A DNA stretch of 64,000 bases from Deltaproteobacteria bacterium (lineage in GTDB: Bacteria > Bdellovibrionota > Bdellovibrionia > Bdellovibrionales > Bdellovibrionaceae), in assembly GCA_017302835.1 (NCBI GenBank), contig JAFLCC010000002.1, positions 62,001 through 126,000 on the forward strand. The letters run 5' to 3'. The translations under genes and the position numbers were made by a program. Positions 160-29,700 of this stretch are shown piece after piece. The notes below the pieces were generated by a model that saw only the letters and a program-made list of their open reading frames with translations, had not been told where the DNA came from and did not search any database. Position 1 is the first letter of the stretch, and every line of letters begins with the position of its first letter.

Positions 160-1716
160 ATGTTTGAGCTAGAGGAAAATATCAGTATTGGAGCGAACAT
201 AAAAGTAGTGGGTGTTGGTGGCGGCGGCAGCAATGCGGTTTCGACAATGATTGCTGGTGGAATGACCGGTGTTGAGTTTATTGTGGCCAACACAGATATT
301 CAAGCCTTGAACTCAAATAAAGCCGCAACTAAATTACAACTGGGATTAGATTTAACCAAAGGCTTAGGCGCTGGTGCCAATCCTGATGTAGGAAGAAGAG
401 CTGCCATTGAATCCTACAATGAAATTGTTGAAAAGCTAGAGGGCGCTGATATGGTTTTTGTCACTGCTGGCATGGGTGGTGGCACAGGAACAGGTGGCGC
501 ACCTGTTGTCGCAAAGATTGCTCGAGAGCTGGGCGCTCTTACTATTGGAGTTGTGACCAAGCCCTTCATGTTTGAAGGTAAGAAAAGAAGCAAGCACGCA
601 GAAAGTGGATTGCAAGAATTACGAGAAAATGTCGACACTCTTATCGTCATTCCTAATCAAAAGCTATTAACAATTGCTGCAGAGAAAACCCCTTTATTGG
701 AAACATTCAAAAAAGCTGACGAGGTTTTATTACAAGCCGTAAAAGGCATCTCTGACTTGATAAATATACGTGGTTTAATTAATCTAGATTTTGCAGATAT
801 TCGCACGGTGATGAAAGAAAAAGGCATGGCCATCATGGGAACGGGCGCTGCTAAAGGTGAAAACCGTGCGGTTCAAGCCGCGACAGCAGCCATTTCTTCT
901 CCGCTTCTTGAAAATATCAAAATTGATGGAGCTACAGGAATTATTATCAACGTCACCGGGGGATCGGATCTCAGCCTTTACGAAGTTAATGAAGCCTCCA
1001 CCCTTATCACAGAGGCAGCCCATGAAGATGCCGAAATTATTTTTGGAGCCGTTATTGATGACAGCTTAGGGGATGAAGTGCGAGTGACTGTAATAGCCAC
1101 CGGTTTTTCAAAACCAGAACCTAAGATCAATGTACAAGACGCCTTTTCTGGAATGCAAAATTTCCTAAATCCAATCGTTAACAATCAGGGTGTTTCGATG
1201 CCCAATTTGAATTTCACACTGCCCCCTATGCCCAATTTGAATTATGAATTGCCGCCCATTTCAACGGTGCAAAACTCAGTGAATTATTTTACTCAAGAAA
1301 AAATATTTTCACAAGAAATTCATATGCCGATGGCGATGCCAAGTCCAAGTCAAAATCAAAGTCAAAATCAAAGTCAAAATCCTGTTCCACAAGCGATGGA
1401 AGAGATTCATCAGGTTCCCTCTGTTTCTCAAATCCCTGCTCCTCAGCCCATTGAAGCGACGCCTATTGCTCCGATAGACTCGTCTTTAAATACTCGAGAA
1501 ATGTTGATCGCCAAGGCACGCGCTTTTAGAGAAAGTCAGGAAATAAAAAATAAACATCATCAGCCAGAGCAGCTTTCAATGAATGTGGACGCCGAGGCTT
1601 CCTTAGAAGAAGCCAGAAAAATGGCCCGGGAGGTCTTAAACTCCTCATTCTCGAGTCAAAATTTAGAAGTTCCTTCTTTTATTCGCAAAAGACAAAGTCA
1701 AGAAATTGATAAATAA
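160..1716 (+). CDS. ftsZ: Cell division GTPase FtsZ
   Basis: Tubulin-like GTPase that assembles the cytokinetic Z ring. The nucleotide-binding tubulin signature GGGTGTG is at residues 106-112, the N-terminal glycine loop [10 protein letters not shown] near 17-26, and the catalytic T7 loop NLDFAD at 208-213. The GTPase core ends near residue 320. The remaining 200 residues form a long linker rich in Pro, Gln, Asn and Ser, with an MPNLN..LPP unit occurring twice and a short QNQS repeat. It ends in VPSFIRKR, the conserved C-terminal peptide that binds FtsA and ZipA-type partners. At 518 residues it is longer than typical FtsZ (about 380-400), entirely because of the linker. A GGGGAGAG ribosome site precedes the ATG. 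Confidence 0.97.
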
Positions 1717-1719
1717 TGA

Positions 1720-2514
1720 ATGGCAGTTAGTTACTTTTTATCTGATGTTCATATAAAAGATAATCAAGATATAAATTATATAAAACTCAATCAGTTTTTA
1801 GAAAAAGATTGGTTGAGTCATCGGGGCGATATTTATTTACTTGGAGATATCTTTGATCTTTGGGTTTCAAACCATCAAATTTTTGTTCATTCCTATAAGC
1901 GGCTTATACATAATTTAATTCAGGTTAAACAAAAAGGATTTAAAGTCGTTTACTTTGAAGGAAATCATGATCTTCATTTAAATAAATTTTGGCATCAGGA
2001 ATTAGGATTTGAAGTTCAAAGAGAAATAAAGACCTATTCCATTGAGGGATTAAAATTTCGATTAGAACATGGTGATTTGATCAACTCCAAAGACCTAGCC
2101 TATTTGCGGTTACGTCGATTTCTAAGAACACCGACAATGACATTTTTAGCTCATACTATTCCTGGATTGTTTTGGAAAATTTTGGGACAAAAATGGAGTC
2201 ATGAAAGCAGAAAAAACAGCCGTCGGTTTAAAGAAAACAAAACGACTGAAATTATCGAAATGATCCGAAACTATGCTGAAAATCAAGATCAAGATCAAAA
2301 GCAGAATCATGATCCTGACCGCGATCCTTTTGATGTAATGATTACTGGGCACATGCATGTAAAAGACACTTACGAATTTCAAAAAAACAATGAAACAAAG
2401 ATATCCATCAATTTAGGATCTTGGTTTGAAGAGCCATCTATATTGAAATTTGAGCGATGTGTGCCAGGGAACTCGCTGAAGAATTTTTCCTGGATAAAAT
2501 GTGAGAGTCCTTAG
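1720..2514 (+). CDS. lpxH: LpxH-like UDP-2,3-diacylglucosamine hydrolase
   Basis: Calcineurin-like metallophosphoesterase of the LpxH type, which cleaves UDP-2,3-diacylglucosamine to lipid X in lipid A synthesis on the cytoplasmic face of the inner membrane. All metal motifs are visible: SDVH (residues 6-9), GDIFDLW, GNHDLH, HGD and the late GHMH. GDxFDLW is typical of LpxH rather than generic phosphoesterases. Length 264 is close to the family's about 240, the excess being an Asp/Gln-rich insert near residues 188-203. It starts 3 bases after the ftsZ stop, so it is probably co-transcribed. A related LpxH2-like role cannot be excluded. Confidence 0.8.
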   Translation: MAVSYFLSDVHIKDNQDINYIKLNQFLEKDWLSHRGDIYLLGDIFDLWVSNHQIFVHSYKRLIHNLIQVKQKGFKVVYFEGNHDLHLNKFWHQELGFEVQREIKTYSIEGLKFRLEHGDLINSKDLAYLRLRRFLRTPTMTFLAHTIPGLFWKILGQKWSHESRKNSRRFKENKTTEIIEMIRNYAENQDQDQKQNHDPDRDPFDVMITGHMHVKDTYEFQKNNETKISINLGSWFEEPSILKFERCVPGNSLKNFSWIKCESP

Positions 2515-16959: not shown

Positions 16960-17091
16960 TTGTCCCTCATCTTTTTTTTCAATTAGAAATACAATAAAAT
17001 GAGATCCAAAACCTATGCCGACCTCTTGTCGAAATAAATGACAATTTAGAACAAGGCTATTGTCTATTTGAAAATGAAGTGACTTTAATTG

Positions 17092-17922
17092 TTACTTTGT
17101 TGTGTTCGTGCACATCTTAAAAGCTTCAACCAAAAAACCGCGAGGGACATTGGGAATATTTCTTGGAGCAACTGGAAAGGGCCATCGGGTGGGGGAGACT
17201 TCCCCGGTTTGTTTAACGACGGCATTCCAATGAAAACCTTCCATGAATTTTTCTGGCTCGTCGGTACCAAAACGCCAAGGAGCCCCCATTTTTTCCAAAA
17301 ATTGAAGCTGTCTTTTCATATAAGGTGCTTCAAGCAAAGTGCGACTTAAAATATCAAAGAGCATCACATCCTTGACCGAGGCTAAAGAATTTATTCTTTC
17401 AAACAAGGTTACAACTTGTGACTCTTCCAAATACATTAACAAGCCTTCAACCATCCACAAGGTCGGCTCTGATCGTTTCCATCCTGCTCCTTGTAATTTC
17501 CCTTGCCACTCCTCGCGCAGATCAACAGCAAGGGCGTGACGTTCGCACCGGAGCGGAGCCTTGGTCAGTTTCATTTGTTTGTAATCTAGAACTTCTTTTC
17601 GATCCAACTCGTACAACTGTGTTCCTTTTGGAAAAGAAAGTCGAAATGCCCTGGTATCCATTCCCGCCGCTAACATGACAATTTGTCGAATCCCCTTAGT
17701 CAGAGCTTCGGTAATTTTTTGGTCTATAAAGTAAGTTCGCACGGCAATGGCAGGCTGGTCACCGGATTCCTCGATGGCCCTTCGTAAGAGGTCCATGCCC
17801 TCGTCCCCGGCTAAGATTTCAGCATAAGGATCAGAGAACAATCTTCCTTCCTTGTCACTGCGTTTGGTTTCCATTGCGCGCATGGCGGCTGTTAACAATG
17901 ATGTTTTTGCTATGGCATCCAT
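17092..17922 (-). CDS. Class I SAM-dependent methyltransferase (LCMT-like)
   Basis: Predicted methyltransferase of the leucine carboxyl methyltransferase-like superfamily (PF04072/TIGR00027). Signature segments are SLLTAAMRAMET at the start, RTYFIDQKI, the SAM-binding VMLAAGMDTRAFRL and ELDRKEVLDYK, and WMVEGLLMYL. 276 residues is normal. In other bacteria members often act on polyketides or unknown small molecules; the substrate here is unknown. A strong AAGGAG ribosome site lies before the ATG. The region leftward of it is accessory in character. Confidence 0.85.
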   Translation of the reverse strand: MDAIAKTSLLTAAMRAMETKRSDKEGRLFSDPYAEILAGDEGMDLLRRAIEESGDQPAIAVRTYFIDQKITEALTKGIRQIVMLAAGMDTRAFRLSFPKGTQLYELDRKEVLDYKQMKLTKAPLRCERHALAVDLREEWQGKLQGAGWKRSEPTLWMVEGLLMYLEESQVVTLFERINSLASVKDVMLFDILSRTLLEAPYMKRQLQFLEKMGAPWRFGTDEPEKFMEGFHWNAVVKQTGEVSPTRWPFPVAPRNIPNVPRGFLVEAFKMCTNTTK

Positions 17923-17987
17923 AAACCTCTCCTTTAGAAAGAATATCTATCCTCAAATAGATTCTCTCAAATGTATTCTCTGAAATA

Positions 17988-18958
17988 TTAAAGGAGGAAA
18001 TTCTCCTGAGTCCAAACTTTTTTGTTAACAATTAATAAATTTTTAAAAGCTTTTGATAAATTGCCAGTGGTTGGAGCCCATTTGACTTCAATAGCCCAAT
18101 CTTTTGCTGAAACAAAATCCACCTCTCCATTTTGATCCGAGTAATATCCAATTCGCTTTGCCCTTCGCATGAGATTTTCACAGGCGATGGTCTCTGCCAA
18201 CTGAGCTTCAAAATGCTCGGGAGTTCTTATGCCTGACCAATCGAGAGCGACCCAGTAGATTAATGGATCCGTGAAGTACAATTTCTTTTCCTTTTTCATT
18301 TGAAAAATATCTTTTTCAGGATTGTAAGCATAGAGAACTCTGACGGCAAAGGCATGCTCAAGAATGCTGATATAATCTTGAGCGGTGTGATAGCTCATCA
18401 TCTGTGTGTTTTCTGCTAGAGTTTGCATGCTGAGACTACTTCCCATGGATTTGGCGATTTGCCCAATCAACTCCATCATGTACTGGGGCTGTTTTTTGAG
18501 TTTGACAACGTCGCCTTCGATCCAACGGCGATAAGTTTTAATCGCTTCTGCAGGATAGTTTCCTTCGGCGCCAGACTCTGCGAGAGCCGTTGGAAATCCC
18601 CCCGTTTTCATGTACAGTCGCAACCCATCCAAGCGAGAAAGCAGAGGCCATTTGGCTTGACTTCTCATTTCGCACCATTCATCAAAATCCATAGGTAACA
18701 GAAACATTTCTCCGGTGCCCTTAGCCCACCTTCCTGGCATAAGATCGAGCCCAAATTTTAGATCATAACTATTGGATCCAGTAAGAATAAATTTTTTATT
18801 TAAACTTGAATCGGTCGCTTTCTTGATGGATCGCCACTTAAGGTTACTCCTGGAGACAGAGATATTTCAGGGTATTTTCTTTTGAATGGTCCTTGATCTA
18901 GGGCTGATAAGTGTTTATCTTCAATCCACCAATTAGTATTTTTCCAAAATAAATTCAT
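17988..18958 (-). pseudogene. Decayed AAA ATPase with DUF4143 domain
   Basis: Two pieces of one gene in different frames. The N-terminal piece runs from about 18958 (MNLFWKNTNWW, then EDKHLSALDQGPFKRKYPEI) to SLSPGVTL near 18841, after which the frame runs on to a stop at 18800 with no P-loop. The C-terminal piece resumes at about 18850 with KWRSIKKATDSSLN, ILTGSNSYDLKFG and MPGRW, and continues through the DUF4143 domain to 17988. In intact relatives the Walker A motif and the Walker B/DEV region lie between these pieces; here they are deleted (roughly 75-100 residues) and the frame is shifted. The product cannot bind ATP. The family is known for single-gene ATPases with a nuclease-like C-terminus, often mobile. 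Confidence 0.85.
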
Positions 18959-18970
18959 AACTTGTGATAG

Positions 18971-19011
18971 CTTCTTATTTTTGAGAAGTCTACTTCTTAT
19001 TTTTGAGAAGT
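18971..19011. repeat. Two tandem 19-bp palindromic units
   Basis: CTTCTTATTTTTGAGAAGT occurs twice, at 18971-18989 and 18993-19011, with a 22-base period. Each copy is itself an inverted repeat (ACTTCT/AGAAGT arms around eight bases, counting the flanking A). The pair lies immediately upstream of the likely start of the decayed ATPase, a position that would suit an operator for a dimeric repressor. Confidence 0.6.
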
Positions 19012-19129
19012 GGACTTGTGGAAAAAATTTAACATAATCAGTATGAAAAATTTGATATTGCCTAATTGAATGGCTCAAACAATAGAGTCAATTAAAACTA
19101 TGGAATTCTTTTTAGTTTTATAAAGATGG

Positions 19130-20428
19130 TTATGGGTAATAAGATCTTAAACACCGGTTAAAAAAACCGTTTGGATTTTGTGAAAATCGAGCGTATTCAG
19201 TTGATATTCTTGCAATGAATGGAGCGAACATAAGATCCAGATGTCCATTTATTTCGGACCTAAAAAATCTCATATTGGGATTTCTTTTTTTCATCTGATC
19301 AAAATCTTTTTTAATCAAATCAGCATTTGCTAACTGATCTCTATCGCCAGCTACAACGAAGGTAGGAACGGTTATTGGCGCCATTTTTCCCATATCTTTT
19401 TGATTTCTGAATTTCATATTTTTCAAAGAATTAACGATATCGGAGTGTGGATCAGAATGATTGGTGGCTAACATCGCACCAAGTTTAGTTTTAAAATCTC
19501 CAAACTCATCTAAATTTCCGACGGCATTAATGAATGGCCGAATAAAATTGTCAGGTATGAATGGGCTTAGTTTATCAAATGCACTTCTTAAAATGGATTT
19601 AATTCCATTAATAGTTGAATAAGAGCTTCCTCCCAAGCCAATAGGTAAAAATCCGTTAAAAATTGGCGCTTTAGAGCCAAGAATTTTTGAAATTATTTTC
19701 ACTAGTTCTTCAACGGCTGGCCCAAGACCCTCTAACGAGTTCGGAGGTGAACCGACAAAGATATTTCCCTTAATCATCTTTTGTCTTTTTCTTCCGGTAT
19801 CCTCATCATAGACATGACTACCTAAATTATTAATCTCTATGAGTCCTTTTTCCCAATCTTTTAGGGTCATTCCCCCCATTGAAAAACCCATAACCATTAG
19901 CTCTCTAGGTGATTCTTTAATTCCTTGATCTAAATTTTCTTGTTTCTTCATTTCTAGAATAGCAGGGATAGTTATGTCGTAGGAACGAACAATATTTACA
20001 AAACCATAATCACCAGGTTTATATGGTGTGGTTTTCGACTCTTCTCCAGGATTTCCAGAGCCCAGGTGGTTACTCATAAAAACATCGAAACCCTGATGGT
20101 AAAAAAAACGTCCAGCAAACTCCATCATGGAATAATTATTTGTAAATCCATGTGAAAGAAAAATGGCTGGCGCTCCGATTCGACGGTAACGTTTAAAAAA
20201 TATTTCAATTTTTCTTTTTTCTTGGTGCCTTGATTTTGATTCGTCGGGAATCTCGTCTTCCCAAATAAAGGATTCTTGTTCACTTTGAGCTATAGTCTCA
20301 AAATTGGATAATCTAGAGCTTTGTAAGGTCTCATCAATACAGGATTCAGATCGGCAATTTAATTGGGCTCCCCAGCTAGGAACAAAGAAAAAAAACAATA
20401 AATGAATGATTCTGGAAAACAACCGCAT
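19130..20428 (-). CDS. Secreted alpha/beta hydrolase (lipase/esterase-like)
   Basis: Exported alpha/beta-hydrolase of 432 residues with an N-terminal signal (MRLFSRIIHLLFFFFVPSWGA). The nucleophile elbow is GFSMGG, preceded by the oxyanion region SHGFTNNYSMMEFAG; the acid is probably the Asp of VVAGDRDQLA and the base the His of EINGHLDLMF. This order is that of lipases and cholesteryl-ester-hydrolase-like enzymes. Four cysteines early and late may form disulfides. The ATG has only a weak ribosome site. The substrate, perhaps a membrane lipid, cannot be deduced. Confidence 0.8.
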   Translation of the reverse strand: MRLFSRIIHLLFFFFVPSWGAQLNCRSESCIDETLQSSRLSNFETIAQSEQESFIWEDEIPDESKSRHQEKRKIEIFFKRYRRIGAPAIFLSHGFTNNYSMMEFAGRFFYHQGFDVFMSNHLGSGNPGEESKTTPYKPGDYGFVNIVRSYDITIPAILEMKKQENLDQGIKESPRELMVMGFSMGGMTLKDWEKGLIEINNLGSHVYDEDTGRKRQKMIKGNIFVGSPPNSLEGLGPAVEELVKIISKILGSKAPIFNGFLPIGLGGSSYSTINGIKSILRSAFDKLSPFIPDNFIRPFINAVGNLDEFGDFKTKLGAMLATNHSDPHSDIVNSLKNMKFRNQKDMGKMAPITVPTFVVAGDRDQLANADLIKKDFDQMKKRNPNMRFFRSEINGHLDLMFAPFIARISTEYARFSQNPNGFFNRCLRSYYP

Positions 20429-20565
20429 AGGAAAGTGACGTTCACATTTTATGCCAATAGTAAATATAACCCATAATTTGAGCTATTTAACACAAAAAGG
20501 AGCTAAGAGATTCTGAATGTTTATTTTTTTGGACTCCAATCCATTTTTAAATATATATTTATTTT

Positions 20566-21084
20566 ATGAACAACGAGAATAAATCAACAAACGATTCAAC
20601 AAAGGAATTAATAAAAAAACAAGATTTCTCAAAGAGAATTATCATTAGTAGCGAAAAGCAGACAGCGGAATTATGGCAGGGCGGTACACTTCGAAAAACT
20701 TATCTCATTTCAACGGCCCAAAATGGCTTGGGATGCAGCGAAGGCAGTTACTGCACTCCATATGGGAAACTGAGAGTGTTATCAAAAATAGGCGACGGAC
20801 TTCCGATGGGTGCGGTCTTGCGCTCAAGGGTCTCTACTGGGGAGATTTGGCCTAACAACTCGAATGATTCTGACGAAGATCTTGTTCTGACGAGAGTGCT
20901 TTGGCTGGAAGGGGTGGAGGAACATAACTTAAACACTCAATTTCGGTTTATCTATTTACATGGGACCAATCATGAATCCATGCTAGGTAAAGCTGTTTCC
21001 CATGGCTGTATTCGTTTTAGAAATAAAGACATTTTAGAATTGTATGATAGTGTTGATGTTGGCACTGAAGTTAAGGTTGTATGA
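20566..21084 (+). CDS. L,D-transpeptidase (YkuD domain) without signal peptide
   Basis: YkuD-fold cysteine transpeptidase: the motif YLHGTN...SHGCIRF holds the catalytic His and Cys (Cys about residue 148). Such enzymes make 3-3 cross-links or attach proteins to peptidoglycan. The 172-residue protein begins with a charged, Asn/Ser/Lys-rich stretch and has no signal peptide or membrane helix, unusual for an enzyme whose substrate is periplasmic. No ribosome site is visible before the ATG at 20566. Its stop overlaps the start of the M24 gene (ATGA), so the two are translationally coupled. Alternative roles, such as a cytoplasmic amidase-like activity, are possible. Confidence 0.85.
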   Translation: MNNENKSTNDSTKELIKKQDFSKRIIISSEKQTAELWQGGTLRKTYLISTAQNGLGCSEGSYCTPYGKLRVLSKIGDGLPMGAVLRSRVSTGEIWPNNSNDSDEDLVLTRVLWLEGVEEHNLNTQFRFIYLHGTNHESMLGKAVSHGCIRFRNKDILELYDSVDVGTEVKVV

Positions 21085-21758
21085 AAAATACTGAAAGTGA
21101 ATATGCAGGCGATAACTATGAAAGAACTGGAGCTAAATTTAACTTAGATATTTTTCTAAATGCCAGAGAGATGTGTATTTCCACAACTCATAAGATTATC
21201 TCAGAAATTCAATCAGGAATGAATGAAAAAGACATCAAAGATTTGGTAGACAAACATTTTTCAAAAATTGGCGTTACTAAATTCTGGCATCCGACGAAAA
21301 TTAGAATTCAATCAGATACCATGAAAAGTTTTAGGGAATTGTCAGATCCTCATTTGAAATGTGCCATTGGGGATATTTGTTTCTTAGATTTAGGGCCTGT
21401 GATTCAAGAACATGAGGCAGATTATGGCAAAACATTTTTAGTTGGAAAATCAGAAACAAATAGTCTGATTCAAACTTGTCATGCGATTTTTGACAGTTGC
21501 GCGCAAAAGTGGAAATTAGAAAGATTATCAGGAAAAAAATTATTTGAATATGCCAATGAATTAGCTAAGAAACAAGGTTATAAATTAAATCCGATGATGT
21601 CAGGCCATCGGTTAGGTGATTTTCCTCATAAGCTATTCTCCTCTGAAAAATTGTTTGAAATAGAATCAGTACCAACTAAGAATTTGTGGGTTTTAGAAAT
21701 ACACATTATTGATGAATCAAAAAATACCGGCGCCTTTTTCGAAGATATTTTACTTTAA
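21081..21758 (+). CDS. M24 family metallopeptidase (single domain)
   Basis: Pita-bread-fold peptidase of the aminopeptidase P/methionine aminopeptidase clan. All five metal ligands can be placed: Asp in FLDLGP, Asp in EADYGKTF, His in GHRLGD, Glu in VLEIHI and Glu in FFEDILL. 225 residues means the catalytic domain only, without the N-terminal creatinase domain. No export signal, so cytoplasmic. It overlaps the YkuD gene by 4 bases. The last 132 bases are duplicated at 24535-24666, about 96% identical, so the gene end marks one border of a rearrangement. Confidence 0.85.
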   Translation: MKNTESEYAGDNYERTGAKFNLDIFLNAREMCISTTHKIISEIQSGMNEKDIKDLVDKHFSKIGVTKFWHPTKIRIQSDTMKSFRELSDPHLKCAIGDICFLDLGPVIQEHEADYGKTFLVGKSETNSLIQTCHAIFDSCAQKWKLERLSGKKLFEYANELAKKQGYKLNPMMSGHRLGDFPHKLFSSEKLFEIESVPTKNLWVLEIHIIDESKNTGAFFEDILL

Positions 21759-21828
21759 GTCAAATTGATTTGGCTAAAAAACAAGTCGTTTGGAAATATT
21801 CAATTGGAACTTCTACAAATATGTTCAA

Positions 21829-23571
21829 TTAAGTTTCAGGATTGTTTTTCAAAGCTGAACAAGAACTAGTTTGGGTGTTTGTGTCAACCAGGCACTTCTC
21901 TAATTCGTCGGCGTCTTCTTTTTTAAATTTTTTTTCTGATATCCAATTTCGAGCCCTAGTTTTCCAGTCTGGTCCCTTAACAGAATTATTAATTTCTTTT
22001 AAAGCCTGATGTAGATCTTGAGGATTTTCTTTGGCTATAGATTCTAAAAATTCTTTTCTAGGAAAGTTTTCTATTTTCGAAAAGGAAATGGATCGATCCA
22101 GTTCTGAAAGCAATTGCTTACGTTCTTTTGCGTTTAAACGAGTATCTGATTTAATACTTTCAATAAGTGAGTTATATTTTTGAGATATACCTAAAATTGC
22201 AATTTGTTGATCCCGTTTTAGTTTTCTAGCTTGGGAGAAATTATTTAAAGCAACAGTTCCAGAAAGTGCTGCTAAACCTAAATCAGTTAAACATTCTGAA
22301 TGATTGATCTGTGAAGTTAATTCAAGATCAATACCGTTATTTTTTTGATTTTCTACACGGGAACAAATAGAACTTTCCATCTTTTGATAATGAGGTGAAC
22401 AAGAGTCAACAATACTTTTGACGACTTCGGTTGTTGAAATCGACGTATTGGCGACACTTGAAATTACATGTCCTAATTTTGCGGCCCTTTGTGTGGCTAT
22501 TCCAATTTGTGCCAAACGACTTAACATTAAGGCAGCTCCTCCAAAAAAAATTGTAACCCCCCCAATGACAACAGAGTTTGCTATGGATGAAATTTTTTCT
22601 CCTTTTCCGTATTTGGAATCTAGATCACATTGTATTTGAGCAAACTGCGAATTTTGATTAACCTTTCGATTTAATATATTTGCTCCAATCCCTGACTGAA
22701 TCGTAGCAACTTTAAAATAGTAATCTTTGTCATACATTCCATTTATTTTAGAAAACTTAACTTGTTCTTCTGAAATTGATATGAGCTTTCTGTTGACAAC
22801 TTGCGATTGAAAACTGTCAGAGTTATCTTCATAGAAATATTTTTTTAATTCATTTAAATCTGGATTTTTTCCAGAGGCATAAGTATTATGAATTTTTTTA
22901 ATTATTTTAAATTTTACAAAACTGGATACTTCCGGATCTTCAGAAAACAACAAGGAATTCTCTAGAACAGCTATCTCGTTTGTCAACTTCTCTATTTTAA
23001 GTTTTGGAGATAAAGTTGGATCCGCTGAAAATACTGGATTACTTGCTTTTATAAAGTTCAACTCCCTTTCCTTTTGCGCAATTTGAAAACTGCTTTCAAC
23101 AAGTTTATCAACAATTCGTTTTTGGGCTTCTTGGGCTTCTTTTATAGAATTATTATTCGTGGGCTTTGAATCAATATTGCGGTTTGAGGGGCTAATAGAC
23201 TTCAATTTATTTTGTAATTCTGGAAATTGAACATTTAGCTTTTTATTTGCTTCGTCTTGGTCCTTAAAAGCTGAATTGTCATCCGTGTTTAATCTGCTCC
23301 AATAGGTAAATTGACATTGATTCTGTATACTTTGCTCCTTTAGAGCTTCATCAAAATATGATTTCGTTAGCAGGTCTTTGCTGAGGTTTTGATTTATCTG
23401 TGACGAGTCCTCAGATTTCGAACAAGTTCCATTGCCTCCGGCAAAACTAGAAGAAGCACACTTTTCTGCAAATTGATTGTACCAGAACTCATTAACACTT
23501 GAACGCAACCAATCGTAGGTTTGGGCCTCCGATTTAAATACTAAAAAAGAAAGAATAAAAAATAAATACAT
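21829..23571 (-). CDS. Secreted or membrane-anchored protein, unknown
   Basis: About 580 residues starting MYLFFILSFLVFKSEA, a Sec signal; a GTG at 23604 could add eleven residues, and neither start has a good ribosome site. The first 300 mature residues are polar, helical and coiled-coil-like. A hydrophobic segment near 320-345 (VVIGGVTIFFGGAALML) could span a membrane, followed by a further weakly hydrophobic stretch and a charged tail (KERKQLLSELDRS). At least six cysteines are spread along it. No family recognised. It diverges from 23695 with a 120-base shared promoter region, and both lie inside the 2.8 kb repeat-bracketed segment. Confidence 0.6.
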   Translation of the reverse strand: MYLFFILSFLVFKSEAQTYDWLRSSVNEFWYNQFAEKCASSSFAGGNGTCSKSEDSSQINQNLSKDLLTKSYFDEALKEQSIQNQCQFTYWSRLNTDDNSAFKDQDEANKKLNVQFPELQNKLKSISPSNRNIDSKPTNNNSIKEAQEAQKRIVDKLVESSFQIAQKERELNFIKASNPVFSADPTLSPKLKIEKLTNEIAVLENSLLFSEDPEVSSFVKFKIIKKIHNTYASGKNPDLNELKKYFYEDNSDSFQSQVVNRKLISISEEQVKFSKINGMYDKDYYFKVATIQSGIGANILNRKVNQNSQFAQIQCDLDSKYGKGEKISSIANSVVIGGVTIFFGGAALMLSRLAQIGIATQRAAKLGHVISSVANTSISTTEVVKSIVDSCSPHYQKMESSICSRVENQKNNGIDLELTSQINHSECLTDLGLAALSGTVALNNFSQARKLKRDQQIAILGISQKYNSLIESIKSDTRLNAKERKQLLSELDRSISFSKIENFPRKEFLESIAKENPQDLHQALKEINNSVKGPDWKTRARNWISEKKFKKEDADELEKCLVDTNTQTSSCSALKNNPET

Positions 23572-23694
23572 TACTTTAAACTTATCGGAAGTGAGTAAAG
23601 TCACAGAACACGACTAGAGTATGGTTTAATAAAAAAATTGCGATTTTGTTAGCTCAAGGGCTAAAAAAATAGATTTAATCTCCGATATAAGTAA

Positions 23695-24432
23695 ATGAAT
23701 TTAGTAAAAATAGTTATTACAATTATGATTCTATTCGAGTCTTGTTTTGGATTAAGACAAATACCACCAAGAGATCAGAGAGAAAAAGCTGTATGTCATA
23801 CTACTTTTAAGGCAGCCATGCATGGAGTCTTCTACGATGAAAAAGGCAAATTATTGCGCCCGGTGCCCTTGAGTGATTCGTCCATGGTGATTGATTCTAA
23901 TTTGATTAAAGTTTTTGAGGAAGTGCGAAAAGGTAATGCTGGAATAAGCCGTCAACAACGTTATTCGGCTCTAATTAAACTAATAAAAACGAAAAAAAAA
24001 CATGGGGAAGATATTCACTTTTGGATATCTAATCGAACAGCGAAAGAAATAAATGATGGAAAAGTTGCAGAATTAATTCCCGAGGGCACTAGACTTGTCC
24101 CTATTTCAGATTCGCGATCTTCTGACCTTTATCGCGATTTAAATAGGGAAATTGAAAAACTAGAAGTAGGCGGAGTTAGTGCAACCTCTTATAAGGACAG
24201 AGAAACTATTACTGATTTATTTTTTGCAGAGAAAAATAATCAGGGGGTAGTTCCTACATTTGTAACAGCTGATCATCAAGTTATAAGGCCTCTTTGTGCC
24301 TTAAATCCACTTTGTGCAGAATTGAAAGGTTATATGAAATTGATTAAAGAACAGTTTGCTGAAGGTTTTGAAGTTACCGTAAAGGACTTATTAGGAAAAG
24401 ATAGAACAATTCGCGTTATTCCATTTAATTAA
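23695..24432 (+). CDS. Secreted protein, possibly PIN-like nuclease fold
   Basis: 245 residues with an N-terminal signal-like stretch (MNLVKIVITIMILFESCFG). The C-terminal half contains KDRETITDLFFAEK and GVVPTFVTADHQVIRPLC: an Asp-containing helix followed by a strand ending T-A-D, the arrangement seen in PIN-type metal-dependent nucleases. This is a weak structural guess. Two cysteine pairs occur near the ends (AVCH, PLCALNPLC). No ribosome site. The gene is divergent from 21829 and precedes a copied piece of the M24 gene. Not a recognised family. Confidence 0.55.
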   Translation: MNLVKIVITIMILFESCFGLRQIPPRDQREKAVCHTTFKAAMHGVFYDEKGKLLRPVPLSDSSMVIDSNLIKVFEEVRKGNAGISRQQRYSALIKLIKTKKKHGEDIHFWISNRTAKEINDGKVAELIPEGTRLVPISDSRSSDLYRDLNREIEKLEVGGVSATSYKDRETITDLFFAEKNNQGVVPTFVTADHQVIRPLCALNPLCAELKGYMKLIKEQFAEGFEVTVKDLLGKDRTIRVIPFN

Positions 24433-24534
24433 ATAATGTACTATTCCAGAGGTTTTATACAACGAGGGTATCGTACAAGCTTAATCCATTCCCAGAATGA
24501 AATTCTCTTTTAACAATAAATGGAGTTGTAGGTC

Positions 24535-24666
24535 CATAAGCTGTTCTCCTCTGAAAAATTGTTTGAAATAGAATCAGTAACAACTAAGAATTTGTGGGTT
24601 TTAGAAATACACATTATTGATGAATCAAAAAAAGCCGGCGCCTTTTTCGAAGACATTTTACTTTAA
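24535..24666 (+). pseudogene. Duplicated 3' end of the M24 peptidase gene
   Basis: Identical in frame and length to the last 132 bases of the M24 gene (21627-21758, offset 2908), including the stop, with about five substitutions. It encodes HKLFSSEKLFEIES through GAFFEDILL but has no upstream part. The reading frame is still open, so the copy is recent or under conversion with the parent. Homology begins abruptly at CATAAGCT. The 5' flank (24433-24534) shows no gene. Confidence 0.92.
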
Positions 24667-24673
24667 AAAAAGG

Positions 24674-25432
24674 TCAGTTTGTTTGATCAGAACTAGGATA
24701 TGCAGATATCAGAGTTGGTTTGGCGTCTTTGGGCGCTAACGGGTCAACGAAGAAAATAAGATCGATGTTCATTATAATATTCTGACCTAAATTAATACGT
24801 CCTTTAATTTTGAAACGGTCACTATCTTGAAAAAATATTTTTTGATTTGAAAAATGTCGGTAAATCAAAGCTATTTTTTTAACAATATTTAATTGGTCCC
24901 AATCTCTTGGGAAAAAATGTTTCATATTGGTTTTGTTTGTATTATGTTTTAGACCTGTTTTTTGTTGAGGAAATATCTCTTGCGGAAAACGAATAGCGGT
25001 CACTCCATTTTTAAAAGTTTTAATATCTTGTGGATTTAGTTCAAAATGATTTTTCAGTCCAACATGCAGTGATAGGAATCTATGAAATCCTTCAACAGTA
25101 TGAAGACCTCCAGATAAAATAAGATCATTGCCATCTAATTTATAATCTCCATAAAGTATATGTGAAAGAGTTTTGGGTGATATTTGAAATGGTAAATTGG
25201 TATTTTGAATATATTTTAACGCCTCATCCGATAATGGGGCGCTATTAAGGACGGTAATAATTTCATCAAGGCTGGATTCTTGGTCACTTGAAATTATTGT
25301 TGGTTTCTTATAATAATCGAAACACCTATTATTAAGTGAAAAGCCATCTGTTTTTGCATTTGTACTAAAAATTAAAGCAAAAATTAAATAGAAAAACTGG
25401 CGAGGTTGGAAAATAGAATTAAATTTAATCAT
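24674..25432 (-). CDS. Secreted EndoU-like nuclease
   Basis: Signal peptide (FYLIFALIFSTNAKT) followed by a domain that matches the pattern of bacterial EndoU (PF14436-like) RNases. Counting from an alternative TTG start at 25453, the pattern is SHILYGD (His 98), SGGLHTVEGF (His 118), NGVTAIRFP, a Lys-rich segment leading to HFFPRDW (179-185), then a GRINLG strand and a final LISAYP. EndoU enzymes cut RNA using two His and a Lys, and bacterial ones are toxin domains of CDI and Rhs proteins or stand-alone effectors. Here the domain is stand-alone and exported. Start ATG at 25432 is preferred over the TTG; the ribosome site is poor. A lipoprotein gene lies 108 bases upstream, same strand. Family call is pattern-based. 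Confidence 0.7.
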   Translation of the reverse strand: MIKFNSIFQPRQFFYLIFALIFSTNAKTDGFSLNNRCFDYYKKPTIISSDQESSLDEIITVLNSAPLSDEALKYIQNTNLPFQISPKTLSHILYGDYKLDGNDLILSGGLHTVEGFHRFLSLHVGLKNHFELNPQDIKTFKNGVTAIRFPQEIFPQQKTGLKHNTNKTNMKHFFPRDWDQLNIVKKIALIYRHFSNQKIFFQDSDRFKIKGRINLGQNIIMNIDLIFFVDPLAPKDAKPTLISAYPSSDQTN

Positions 25433-25540
25433 CACATAAATAATTAACAGCAAAATTCATACCTGATATTTTGCTATTGATGTGAAATAATATACAGCCG
25501 TAATAACTTTAAACAGTTGTTTTCAACGAAAACAAAAAAC

Positions 25541-26332
25541 TTATTTAGAAAACTTCCGTTCTAAGATCGTATCAGATAGTGTTAGCTCTTTATCATTCAT
25601 GCTGTTAAACGACAATGTAGCCTTTTGGTGTTCGAAAAAACCTTTATCGTCGTTAAAAAGAAACCATTGGCTAATGAATTGTGCTTTAAGGAATGTATAT
25701 TTCTCTTCTGGATCAATATTTTCTAGCCAGTTAAGATAAGATTTTTGATCGCAGCTTTTTTCATGAAGGTCAGTTGGAATTTTATCGGAGGTGAGATAGG
25801 GGATACTTTTGGTTTCAAGAATATCTAGATCAAGAGTTGCAAATTGGCCTTTTTCGTTACTTTGATGGGTAGCCGGAGCTTTTTTTGGATTTAAGTTGTT
25901 TCCCTTCATAAATAGGGTGCAAGAGACAGGAACAATTTCCTTATTTGCCAAAGCGATAGCTTCTTTCTCAGTTTCTTCCCATGCTTGCTTAGAATCCTGT
26001 GGAGTCAGTTTACTGGTTGCCAACAGTATTTTTTGATTAATCGCATCTAGTTTAGTTTTATAAACTTTATCTGGAGTTGATTCCATATAATAGCTCAATA
26101 CATGGTTCAATCTTACTTCAATCGAGTTATCTTTTTTAAAGATTATCGAATGTCTATAATTTGATTTTTCAATGTATTCAATATCTGAATTGCTTTCATT
26201 GAGAGCATTTGTTTTGAAACCGTTATAGGTATTTTCATCAAAACTTTCTTTTTGTTCTTCTTTTTTTTCTCCGCAAGAGATAAGACAAAATATAAGAATT
26301 GTGAATAAGATTTTAGTTATCGCTGTTTTCAT
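25541..26332 (-). CDS. Lipoprotein upstream of EndoU-like gene (possible immunity partner)
   Basis: 263 residues from the ATG at 26332, chosen because AAGGAG lies 7 bases upstream and a lipoprotein signal follows at once (MKTAITKILFTILIFCLISC, lipobox LISC then GEKK, which suggests outer-membrane sorting). The mature part is charged with no cysteine pattern beyond HEKSCDQ. No family recognised. It is the gene immediately before the secreted EndoU-like nuclease on the same strand, so it could be a periplasm-facing immunity or carrier protein; this is inference from position only. Confidence 0.6.
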   Translation of the reverse strand: MKTAITKILFTILIFCLISCGEKKEEQKESFDENTYNGFKTNALNESNSDIEYIEKSNYRHSIIFKKDNSIEVRLNHVLSYYMESTPDKVYKTKLDAINQKILLATSKLTPQDSKQAWEETEKEAIALANKEIVPVSCTLFMKGNNLNPKKAPATHQSNEKGQFATLDLDILETKSIPYLTSDKIPTDLHEKSCDQKSYLNWLENIDPEEKYTFLKAQFISQWFLFNDDKGFFEHQKATLSFNSMNDKELTLSDTILERKFSK

Positions 26333-26441
26333 ATAGTAGCTCCTTTTTAATAAATTTTTTGACTCATTCATTGAATACATTTTTTATAAAGCACTTGAAT
26401 TTAAGAAAATAGAACAATTGCGTAAATAGTAAGCGGATTTA

Positions 26442-26457
26442 TTTACTTATCAGTAAA
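26442..26457. promoter_or_regulatory. Small palindrome in divergent promoter region
   Basis: TTTACT-TATC-AGTAAA, a perfect six-base inverted repeat, lies in the 250-base AT-rich spacer between the leftward lipoprotein gene and the rightward gene at 26583. The position suits an operator for either gene; no other evidence. Confidence 0.2.
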
Positions 26458-26582
26458 CGAAAAAATCTCTATTTACCTTTTTACCTGTCAAAAACAAATA
26501 CAGCGAAATTTTTTCATAAATAAATTAAAGTCAGTCAAATTTTTAATTTAATAAACACTAAACAAACAAAAAAGGAGATTTT

Positions 26583-27044
26583 ATGAAAATAGCAATTTTG
26601 GCGATGATGGTGATTTCATCACTTTCTTTCGCAGCAACTACACCTGAAGTATGTCAACTAGCCATTAATGGTCGAGTTACAGGTGCCATGATCTATAAAA
26701 CTCAAGGCAGTGGATTTTTTGATCAAGCTTCTCAATACGCTAAACAACATGGAGTGTGTGTGAAAGCTAGCTTATTGTGGTCAAACAATGGTGTTCGAGT
26801 ATACTCCGCTAATGGGGCTCGAGTTGGTGGTAAAGGTGGCAGCGAGTATTCATCGCTTTCTCAACAAGCAAACTATTCTTGTGTTGATTTCGCTTGTATT
26901 GCTGTTGTTGATAGCAAAGCCCAAACTGGAACAGGATATGGAACTGGTACCGTTGTGCGACCTGGTTCTAGAATTTCTACTCCCGCTACACCGGCTTATG
27001 TACCTCCTACCTATGTCGAAGTTTCTAGTGGAAGTGCTGATTAA
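26583..27044 (+). CDS. Small secreted protein
   Basis: 153 residues with a textbook signal peptide (MKIAILAMMVISSLSFA) and an AAAGGAG ribosome site 6 bases before the ATG. The mature domain has four cysteines (EVCQ, GVCV, YSCVDFACI), likely two disulfides, and a Gly/Thr/Pro-rich tail (TGTGYGTGT, then TPATPAYVPP) resembling a flexible linker. No family recognised. The next gene, 54 bases on, is also secreted and probably shares the transcript. Confidence 0.6.
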   Translation: MKIAILAMMVISSLSFAATTPEVCQLAINGRVTGAMIYKTQGSGFFDQASQYAKQHGVCVKASLLWSNNGVRVYSANGARVGGKGGSEYSSLSQQANYSCVDFACIAVVDSKAQTGTGYGTGTVVRPGSRISTPATPAYVPPTYVEVSSGSAD

Positions 27045-27098
27045 TCTGGAATTTCAATCGTGAGTGTTCCTTGTTGGTGTTGATTAGGAGGAGTCTAT

Positions 27099-28316
27099 AT
27101 GAAAATGTTGTTTTCAATTTGTTACCTCCTTTTCACCACTGTGTGGGGTTCTTTAGCTTTAGCCGAAGAACCTTTACATAAAACCAATCCTGTTTTATTT
27201 TTAACTCTGCAAAATTACCGCGTTCTTAGCGGGCGTATTCACAAAATTCTTGAATATCGACTTTCGTCTCTGAATCAATGTTCAGTGGATACTCAAAAAA
27301 AATTAAAAATGAGATTTGAAAAGTTACCATTGTATTCTGACAATCGAGAAGTTGTTCTTGATTTTTTATCGTTGTATTCTGATAGCCTGAACGTCGAAAA
27401 AAGTTGCCTAGACACTCTAGATAAGAATGAAAGAGGGTTTAAAAATTTTGAAAGGGAACGGTTTTCGTCGATTCACAAAACCTTGGATACCTTGTGTGAT
27501 TCTTCAAAAAATAGTGAAAACGATTTCGGCGATACTGGGTCGATTGGCAGAAATTGTTATCTGAAAGTTCACCAAGTTTTTTCAGATTTGGATCCTCATT
27601 GTGTTTCTTTTCAAGTTCCCAATTTTACGAATTCTGTGGATCCATTTCCCTGTATGATGGCTGACTACATGATCGGTCGATCTATGGTATCTGAAACAAG
27701 TTGGGAAAAACACATTCAAAATACCGCTAGGTTTATGGATCAATTGAGAAAGGCCTTTGGACGGCCAAACGCTAGAGAACAAGGAATTAATCTTTGGGAA
27801 ATTTTTCTTGGATCAAAAAAAGACACACCTGCTTTGCGCGAGGAATTTTTGGCTCAGCTTAATTTTTTCTTTTCATCGTCTCAGTCTGCGAGTTCTTATA
27901 TCCGTGGTTTTCATGATCATGTTTGGCAGTTCATTTTAAGGAAAACAAATTCACCTTCTGTGACTCTGGACTATTTCTTATCAACTCGAATCCAAATTAA
28001 TGAATTTCAAACGGTTTACAATTGGGCCGTAAAGAATAATTATCCAATGAACATTCAAGGTATCCAGATGGCCGGAAAAAATCGTCATAACTTTATGGCT
28101 GCCTATTTAGCTTGTCATTATCGAGAAGAAAACAGTGTTTTTTTTGAATCATTACCTGTAATGCTTGGATATGCCTATGAATCTTTCGACTTAAAAGCGC
28201 ATCTTATTGAAGATAAGGATAGTTTTGAAGTAGCAAAGGAAAATTTTGTTATAGATACCAATAGGTATAGAACCGGCGTTTATTGGGGTTATCGATTTTG
28301 TAAACAGCAGTTCTAG
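27099..28316 (+). CDS. Secreted protein, unknown family
   Basis: 405 residues, signal peptide ending LALA, excellent AGGAGG ribosome site. The C-terminal third looks conserved and enzyme-like: GKNRHNFMAAYLACHY, LPVMLGYAYES and DTNRYRTGVYWGYRFC hold many His, Tyr, Arg and Cys. The first two thirds are helical with paired cysteines (NQCS, KSCLD, DLDPHC). I cannot name a family. It follows the small secreted gene at 26583 in the same direction. Confidence 0.6.
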   Translation: MKMLFSICYLLFTTVWGSLALAEEPLHKTNPVLFLTLQNYRVLSGRIHKILEYRLSSLNQCSVDTQKKLKMRFEKLPLYSDNREVVLDFLSLYSDSLNVEKSCLDTLDKNERGFKNFERERFSSIHKTLDTLCDSSKNSENDFGDTGSIGRNCYLKVHQVFSDLDPHCVSFQVPNFTNSVDPFPCMMADYMIGRSMVSETSWEKHIQNTARFMDQLRKAFGRPNAREQGINLWEIFLGSKKDTPALREEFLAQLNFFFSSSQSASSYIRGFHDHVWQFILRKTNSPSVTLDYFLSTRIQINEFQTVYNWAVKNNYPMNIQGIQMAGKNRHNFMAAYLACHYREENSVFFESLPVMLGYAYESFDLKAHLIEDKDSFEVAKENFVIDTNRYRTGVYWGYRFCKQQF

Positions 28317-28411
28317 TTTTTACCACTCTGATCTTTATTTTACCTTCACTTGGCCCCACACCCTGCGCTTAGGTCTAGATATTCAAATGAAGTTAAAAGC
28401 TATGTACCACT

Positions 28412-28444
28412 TTGACAAGGAATAAAGACCAAAGGTACTATAAT
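28412..28444 (+). promoter_or_regulatory. Candidate sigma-70 promoter
   Basis: TTGACA at 28412-28417 and TATAAT at 28439-28444 match both consensus hexamers, about 30 bases upstream of the 28475 start. The 21-base spacing is longer than the usual 17, so the -35 box may be coincidental while the -10 box is good. Confidence 0.3.
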
Positions 28445-28474
28445 TAAAGAATTCTCGTTGAGAGGAGTTTAATT

Positions 28475-28975
28475 ATGTTAAAAATATTTTTCGGAGCTAT
28501 TCTTTTTTCTTTTTATTTGTTGGCCGCAATTCCAAGTTCTTCTGTGTCAACAAATAATATATTGAAATTTCAGGGGGCCTTATCTGGGGGTCAAGCCGGC
28601 AATGGTTTTTCTTTACTTAAGTTAGATAAAGTTTTTTTTCAAAATCTGAATTCTGAAAGATGGATTGTGGATGTTGGAAATATCAAAGGGAAAGAGAATA
28701 AGGGATTGCCTGGTTATTACCATGTCCAATTACAAAAAAATCCACCTCAAGTTATTATAAACTTTAATCAAATGCCAGTGTCGTTAGTCGATGAACTTCA
28801 ATTATCAAAGTTTATAAAAGATTCTATTTATGTACGAAATGGCAGATTGTTATCTGACCCTACTGATAAAACGCTAACTTTAATTTTAGATTTAAAGAAG
28901 CCATTGCAACTTAAAGTATTGCAAATTAAAGGACAGAAAAAAACAAGTAAACTTGTTTTAGATATGTTTTTATGA
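28475..28975 (+). CDS. Secreted protein, AMIN-like domain
   Basis: 166 residues with signal peptide (MLKIFFGAILFSFYLLA) and GAGGAG ribosome site. The mature part is a series of short beta strands with charged turns (WIVDVGNIKG, VIINFNQMP, TLILDLKKPL and LKVLQIKG), reminiscent of AMIN domains that target proteins to the septum or peptidoglycan. The resemblance is by strand pattern, not by a clear match. Its stop overlaps the next gene's ATG (ATGA), so both are made together. Confidence 0.55.
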   Translation: MLKIFFGAILFSFYLLAAIPSSSVSTNNILKFQGALSGGQAGNGFSLLKLDKVFFQNLNSERWIVDVGNIKGKENKGLPGYYHVQLQKNPPQVIINFNQMPVSLVDELQLSKFIKDSIYVRNGRLLSDPTDKTLTLILDLKKPLQLKVLQIKGQKKTSKLVLDMFL

Positions 28976-29700
28976 AATATGTTTTTATTCTATTTTTATT
29001 TTCAATCCAAATTTCAGCTAGGGTTTTAACTTTAAGTCAGGAAAAATTTGCAAGTTATTTTTCGGGTGAGATGAGTTCCTCGCTATTGAAAACAGCACCT
29101 TTTGATGATATTGTAACGGCAACGGATTCTTTCTCAGATGAATATAAGCTAGGGATGGGGGGAGAATTTGGATTTGTGTATTCAACACCCTATGTTGGTT
29201 GGCGCTTTGCTTTTGAAATTTTGAAGCCGGGAAAGCTTTCTGATGTTACGGCTTCACAATCTGGAACAGTTAATTATTTAGTTTCAAGTGATGTCACTGT
29301 TGTTTCACCTAAGTTAGGGATAGAAATTCATTTGAATAGACTGCCAAGTTCGCGAATTTATTTATTCGCTTGCTATGGATCGTCAAATTTAACAATGACA
29401 AATACATTTACTGGAGTTGTCGTATCGCCAAATTCAGACCATGAGGTTCCATTGAAAAGCACTGCTCCCTTGATGGTTGGAGGCTTTGGAATGGAGTGGT
29501 CTTTTGTGGATACAACTACTTTTGGAATCGAACTTGGATATCGAAGTTTAGTATTTAGTGAAATTAAATATGCCAAAGATGTTACATCATTTTCTGGATC
29601 CAAAGTGGCTGGCGATCTCTATCAAAATACATTAGGTGAAAACAAGACTTTGAATTTTTCATCATACTTTGGGGCTGTCACCTTTAGATTTTGGCTCTAA
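28972..29700 (+). CDS. Outer-membrane beta-barrel protein
   Basis: 242 residues, signal peptide (MKYVFILFLFSIQISA) and a series of barrel strands ending AVTFRFWL, a terminal aromatic signature. Strands such as YVGWRFAFEIL and TFGIELGYRSLVF and repeated Ser/Thr/Gly turns fit an eight- to ten-stranded barrel. Coupled to the AMIN-like gene by a 4-base overlap, suggesting one protein complex at the outer membrane. Function unknown. Confidence 0.6.
   Translation: MKYVFILFLFSIQISARVLTLSQEKFASYFSGEMSSSLLKTAPFDDIVTATDSFSDEYKLGMGGEFGFVYSTPYVGWRFAFEILKPGKLSDVTASQSGTVNYLVSSDVTVVSPKLGIEIHLNRLPSSRIYLFACYGSSNLTMTNTFTGVVVSPNSDHEVPLKSTAPLMVGGFGMEWSFVDTTTFGIELGYRSLVFSEIKYAKDVTSFSGSKVAGDLYQNTLGENKTLNFSSYFGAVTFRFWL

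What the first reader, a model, noticed from the sequence alone, without database searches (positions are those of the whole stretch)
21627..24666. 132-bp direct repeats bracket a 2.8 kb cassette
The last 132 bases of the M24 gene recur at 24535, same frame, about 96% identical, offset 2908. Between them are two divergent unrecognised secreted-type genes (21829, 23695). This looks like insertion or tandem duplication with loss of all but the ends, and the homology could let the cassette loop out by recombination.
Basis: seen in the sequence. Interest (0 to 1): 0.6.

Follow-up and report, generated by a model that had tools for sequence, protein, structure and literature searches.

The report
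Insertion that duplicated a gene's tail
A small block holding two linked genes for probably exported proteins, one shaped like an RNA-cutting enzyme, seems to have been inserted into the end of another gene, leaving that gene whole and a spare copy of its tail behind; it is a tidy but ordinary kind of insertion in a variable stretch of this genome.

Summary
The last 132 bp of the M24 gene (21627-21758) recur at 24535-24666 with 5 mismatches, in the same frame. The copies begin and end sharply; the right edge is the stop codon. It is the only repeat of this kind in 385,705 bases checked. The second copy is a fragment: its frame closes just upstream and it has lost a proline common in relatives.

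The 2,776 bp between the copies hold two genes that also lie side by side in 3 of 5 genus-mates (2 of 5 have neither), at other loci and without such repeats. The 245-aa protein is probably an exported PIN-domain nuclease: the fold matches VapC-type toxins and four acidic residues are kept. The 591-aa helical partner is unrecognised. The cassette sits in an 11.5-kb stretch peculiar to this genome; in the closest relative that place holds one chemoreceptor gene. No integrase, transposase or terminal repeats were found.

Best reading: one recombination event inserted the module with a copy of the M24 tail, as prophage e14 does in icd, but without a visible integrase. Plain tandem duplication is disfavoured. 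Loop-out is possible but unshown. No relative has the exact empty site.

The parts
20566..21084 (+). YkuD-domain L,D-transpeptidase/carboxypeptidase-like gene, overlapping the M24 gene by 4 bases
   Evidence: Pfam YkuD 67.3 bits, cutoff 23.4; no match in 12 relatives
21081..21758 (+). intact M24-family metallopeptidase-like gene; its 3' end is repeat copy 1
   Evidence: Pfam Peptidase_M24 50.8 bits, cutoff 23; alignment with relatives
21627..21758 (+). repeat copy 1 (R1), last 132 bp of the M24 gene, inside the working reading frame
21759..24534 (.). 2,776-bp insert X between the two copies
   Evidence: edges; no internal repeat of 50 nt or more, no shared junction bases
21829..23604 (-). 591-aa (about 580 aa if the ATG at codon 12 is used) mostly helical protein with hydrophobic N-terminus; unrecognised partner gene
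   Evidence: homologues adjacent to the 245-aa gene in G002, G003, G004; 0 Pfam families; low-confidence helical model, pLDDT 52.9
23695..24432 (+). 245-aa protein with hydrophobic N-terminus and probable PIN nuclease fold; acidic D67, E118, D168, D193 conserved
   Evidence: invariant residues; model pLDDT 72.7; VapC/PIN matches
24535..24666 (+). repeat copy 2 (R2), displaced or duplicated M24 3' end, a fragment with its frame closed by a TAG at 24529
24674..25453 (-). neighbour outside the cassette: 259-aa protein, weakly EndoU-like, only in this genome of 66
   Evidence: Pfam EndoU_bacteria E 0.0058, 17.4 bits, below cutoff 25.3
16960..28474 (.). stretch peculiar to this genome between two blocks collinear with G003
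   Evidence: G003 carries only one gene between the homologues of 16291 and 28475; chemoreceptor by Pfam

Best explanation
A DNA segment in which the two-gene module (591-aa partner plus probable PIN protein) was joined to a copy of the M24 3' end entered the M24 gene by one crossover-like event. The crossover lies in the 132-bp tail. The insert therefore supplies a complete tail to M24 (R1) and leaves a second tail (R2) at its far side, giving A-R1-X-R2-B. Shown: the repeat and its sharp edges, intactness of M24, decay of R2, conservation of the two-gene unit elsewhere, absence of the island in the nearest relative. Inferred: direction (insertion, not deletion of an older array), a single event, and that ordinary recombination (a single crossover of a circle, or homology on one side and illegitimate joining on the other) did it, not a dedicated recombinase. 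Likely role of the cargo (inferred): an exported PIN-type RNase with an envelope partner, spread within the genus by transfer.
For: Sharp edges with 96% identity inside and none outside. X holds exactly the two genes that are neighbours in G002, G003 and G004 and both absent in G001 and G005. Those homologues lie elsewhere: beside a four-gene run (524/564-aa, 894-aa PBP1A-like, 935-aa UvrA-like, ABC-like genes; the last three names recalled) in G002 and G004, while this genome has that run on contig C8 without the pair. G003's collinear site lacks the island. R2 carries threonine where 9 of 14 aligned homologues and R1 have proline, and none of the 14 has threonine. Core genes place G003 nearest (M3 peptidase 73.0 against 64.0-65.7%; RecN 78.3 against 65.7%), yet the pair is nearer to G004 and G002 (591 protein 50.9 and 48.7 against 41.1%), which suggests transfer. 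3.8% divergence between the copies makes the event young relative to the species split.
Against: No strain with the empty site was found, so insertion against loss of an older state is inferred. No microhomology at either junction. GC of the insert (0.333, 0.350) is close to its neighbours (M24 0.322) and not telling. G003 evolves fast in at least one other gene (28972: 60.3% to G003, 61.0% to G002), so the transfer signal is soft; without an outgroup for the 591 protein it cannot be rooted. The right edge falling exactly on the stop codon is not predicted by random joining and fits a gene-tail-carrying element better.
Confidence: 0.6

Rival explanations
1. Remnant or non-autonomous member of an integrating element that targets the 3' end of a protein-coding gene and carries its own replacement tail, as e14 does in icd. 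R1 is the element's tail (attL), R2 the displaced original (attR); the integrase is lost or acts from elsewhere.
For: Same anatomy: e14 separates 163 bp of the icd 3' end and supplies a new one (PMC6379469, passages). The repeat runs from an internal codon exactly to the stop codon, as expected if only coding tail was kept.
Against: No integrase, recombinase or phage gene named among the island proteins examined. Homologous pairs in G002, G003, G004 have no such flanking repeats. No match in phage or plasmid collections or viral contigs. Only one such locus seen.
Confidence: 0.2
2. Tandem duplication of the M24 region followed by deletions that removed all but the second tail.
For: Two copies in direct orientation.
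Against: Sequence after stop 1 and stop 2 is unrelated; nothing of X recurs as a repeat of 50 nt or more; needs at least two extra deletions plus entry of the two-gene module.
Confidence: 0.07
3. Local copying accident (template switch or break repair) that placed a 132-bp M24 tail patch downstream of a cassette that was already next to M24.
For: Explains the arbitrary left edge and the lack of transposition signs.
Against: Leaves the exact stop-codon edge and the module's new location as coincidences.
Confidence: 0.1
4. Assembly artefact.
For: Draft genome in 35 contigs; reads not available.
Against: Five fixed differences between copies; the locus lies inside a 347-kb contig with open genes on both sides.
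Confidence: 0.03

Closest known systems
e14 prophage in icd (Escherichia coli), and phage 21 (phage 21 recalled only)
   Same: Insertion inside the 3' part of a protein gene; insert supplies a working tail, displaced tail remains as a fragment at the far side; repeat length of the same order (163 bp for e14)
   Different: e14 is a 15-kb prophage; here 2.8 kb with two genes and no integrase
Homology-facilitated illegitimate recombination and transformation-made partial duplications (Streptococcus pneumoniae and others; PMC3784515, passages)
   Different: The paper's duplications are about 100-900 kb with one of 3.3 kb; competence of this organism is untested
VapC-type PIN-domain toxins
   Same: Fold of the 245-aa model (VapC11, Z 9.3) and conserved acidic residues
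   Different: Hydrophobic leader and conserved cysteines suggest export; no VapB-like antitoxin gene was recognised; Pfam PIN only E 0.12 in one of five members
Secreted nucleases of Bdellovibrio (Bd0934, Bd3507; PMC7925074, listing and start of abstract only)
   Same: Exported nucleases as a theme, if this host is a related predator (unproved)

Membership tests
Gene-3'-end-targeting integrative element (e14/icd type) | insert supplies the target gene's 3' end; displaced end at the other border | tested here: met
   anatomy; which copy came with the insert is not known
Gene-3'-end-targeting integrative element (e14/icd type) | encodes a site-specific integrase | tested here: not met
   no integrase among the two ORFs of the insert: Pfam, PHROGs, NCBIfam
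Gene-3'-end-targeting integrative element (e14/icd type) | empty attB site in relatives | tested here: inconclusive
   G003 lacks the whole island; exact site not found
Gene-3'-end-targeting integrative element (e14/icd type) | circular excised form | not testable with these tools
   needs reads or PCR
Transposon / insertion sequence | transposase, terminal inverted repeats, short target duplication | tested here: not met
   132-bp duplication; no transposase; no inverted repeat of 50 nt or more in the window; shorter pairs shown do not join the two ends of the insert
PIN domain nuclease | PIN fold | tested here: met
   model pLDDT 72.7; three best Foldseek rows are PIN proteins but best E 0.022; VIA best Z 9.3, rmsd 3.4, 129 aligned. 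Moderate evidence
PIN domain nuclease | conserved acidic active-site residues | tested here: met
   D67, E118, D168, D193 invariant in 4 members; in the distant G011 protein D67, D168, D193 kept. Motif roles recalled
PIN domain nuclease | significant sequence match to a PIN profile | tested here: inconclusive
   Pfam PIN_4 E 0.12 in 1 of 5 members, none in the window's own protein
VapBC toxin-antitoxin | small antitoxin gene directly upstream | tested here: not met
   the neighbour upstream is a divergent 591-aa gene with no antitoxin match
M24 metallopeptidase | Pfam M24 above gathering score | tested here: met

The most novel reading that the evidence does not exclude
The cassette is one of a class of small, integrase-less modules that enter protein genes by carrying a replacement 3' tail, are moved in trans or by recombination, can loop out without harming the host gene, and here deliver an exported PIN-type RNase with a dedicated envelope partner, possibly for use against other cells.
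Probability: 0.1. Interest if true: 0.6.

Novelty: new member of a known kind. Interest (0 to 1): 0.33.

Why it matters
It is a clean, young example of how a two-gene module can enter a working gene without breaking it. The module is a recurring pair in the genus; if its smaller protein is truly an exported PIN nuclease, that is an unusual place for an enzyme family known (from recall) mostly inside cells.

Tried and rejected
Empty site: no close sister species is held. The genus search set has six species including this one, and none has YkuD-M24 followed by the 24674 gene. The genome-contig scan with M24 gave one weak unrelated hit, and near records may be left out there. The M24 of the five genus-mates sits at another, conserved locus; this genome has that locus on C5 without an M24 gene, so its M24 looks like a non-orthologous copy, nearer to another genus (57% to G027).

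Mobile-element reading: no matches for the PIN protein in plasmids, the 591 protein in phages, the 5.9-kb region in phages or plasmids, or either family in viral contigs. Only these collections were tried, each protein in one of the two annotated ones.

Flanking repeats around the homologous pairs: none of 40 nt or more except one 41-nt pair at 4380/4639 of the G002 stretch, inside the neighbouring gene.

Defence reading: PADLOC gave nothing for the cassette proteins. The 591-aa model is too poor for fold search (pLDDT 52.9) and was not searched. Solved-structure sequence searches gave nothing useful. One distant 591-like match in G007 (24% over 168 residues) lies in a much longer protein and was not pursued. 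The class-level search found the PIN family in 5 of 143 genomes, one of them (G011) distant and without a 591-like neighbour among the three ORFs of 70 aa or more in its 3.2-kb locus. Literature searches for gene-tail-replacing elements beyond e14 returned one paper, not read, and none.

Full report
Observation. The repeat is real. Copies lie at 21627-21758 and 24535-24666, 132 nt, offset 2908. They differ at 5 of 132 positions, without gaps; identity starts at a CAT codon and ends at the TAA stop, and beyond both edges there is none. Elsewhere in the window the best match of the first copy is 61 of 132. In the whole genome only these two places match strongly. No other direct repeat of 50 nt or more is in the window, and no other self-match of 60 bp or more at 85% or more in 385,705 bases of window plus 18 fetched stretches.

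Which copy is the gene. The first copy completes a 225-aa M24-family protein aligned with 14 relatives. The second has no room to be a gene: a TAG closes its frame just upstream. Its five differences are two silent and three changing; one replaces a proline that R1 and 9 of 14 homologues share by threonine, seen in none of the 14. That is what a freed fragment does.

The insert. Between the copies are 2,776 bp with a 591-aa gene on the minus strand and a 245-aa gene on the plus strand. In 66 genomes of the family the 245-aa gene matches 4 (this one, G002, G003, G004) and the 591-aa gene matches 5 (the same four and a weak hit in G007). In G002 and G004 the two are divergent neighbours as here; in G003 they follow one another on one strand and overlap by 4 bases. 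G001 and G005 have neither. So the insert is a recurring two-gene unit. In G002 and G004 it borders a run of four genes; this genome keeps that run in the same order on contig C8, without the pair.

The cargo. The 245-aa family has a hydrophobic start, three cysteines kept in all five aligned members, and acidic D67, E118, D168 and D193 invariant in the four genus members. The model (pLDDT 72.7) finds PIN proteins first: two VapC toxins and Utp24, although no Foldseek E-value is below 0.001. In the second look VapC11 leads with Z 9.3, rmsd 3.4, 129 residues aligned, and PIN proteins (by title or recall) fill most of the 50 rows shown. Sequence profiles do not reach significance (PIN_4 E 0.12 in one of five). 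I call it a probable PIN nuclease with an export leader; activity and export are untested. The 591-aa protein is helical and unrecognised.

The surroundings. The window is collinear with G003 on both sides of the region, from the 10769 gene (RecN by recall) to 36978. Between the homologues of the 16291 and 28475 genes G003 has only a chemoreceptor gene, whereas this genome has about 11.5 kb with a leucine carboxyl methyltransferase-like gene, a DUF4143 gene, a hydrolase, YkuD, M24, the cassette, a weakly EndoU-like gene and others. Of 13 proteins from 17092 to 29700 searched against the fetched loci, seven (17092, 19130, YkuD, 24674, 25541, 26583, 27099) had no match (fetched loci only, eight duplicates of this window left out). 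YkuD had none in 12 relatives, although that search had no positive control. The 24674 gene had none in the other 65 family genomes.

Mechanism. A-R1-X-R2-B with X a known unit, M24 intact and R2 decaying is what a single crossover in the tail produces when X arrives joined to an M24 tail. Tandem duplication does not fit, because the sequences after the two stop codons are unrelated. A transposon does not fit: no transposase and a 132-bp duplication. An integrating element of the e14/icd kind fits the anatomy well. In that case 163 bp of icd is separated and replaced (PMC6379469, passages read). But there is no integrase, the homologous pairs have no such repeats, and no phage or plasmid record matches. 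One-sided homologous entry is established in transformable bacteria (PMC3784515, passages read). I put ordinary recombination first and the element second. The exact stop-codon edge is the best point in favour of the element.

Timing and source. Core genes put G003 closest (M3 peptidase 73.0%, RecN 78.3%), but the pair is closer to G004 and G002. That hints at transfer from their side of the genus, with the caution that G003 evolves fast in another gene (28972).

Verdict. The finding is real and best read as a young insertion that duplicated the tail of its target gene. Loop-out is possible and unproved. Kind: known. Moderate interest comes from the cargo.

Noticed in passing
L061 (G000 C5:257500-277400), 9981 and upstream: The genus-conserved place of the M24 gene has no M24 gene in this genome; the M24 at 21081 is nearer to other genera, a likely non-orthologous replacement.
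   Followed up: partly
window 17092-18740: Leucine carboxyl methyltransferase-like gene and a DUF4143 gene with raised GC (0.40-0.46 against 0.32-0.37 around); the DUF4143 protein aligns only to the later part of 375-439-position PADLOC profiles, so it looks truncated at its start; a 43% match lies upstream in the same contig.
   Followed up: partly
window 24674-25453: Weakly EndoU-like protein with a hydrophobic N-terminus, below the Pfam cutoff, next to the PIN gene: two possible exported nucleases side by side.
   Followed up: partly
L053 (G007): A protein of about 900 residues shares a stretch with the 591-aa family (24%) and has a long extra C-terminal part.
   Followed up: no
L066 (G011), 1462-2112, minus strand: A lone distant relative of the PIN protein with no 591-like neighbour in the 3.2 kb seen.
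   Followed up: partly
window 18971-19014: Two adjacent 22-bp copies, 91% alike.
   Followed up: no
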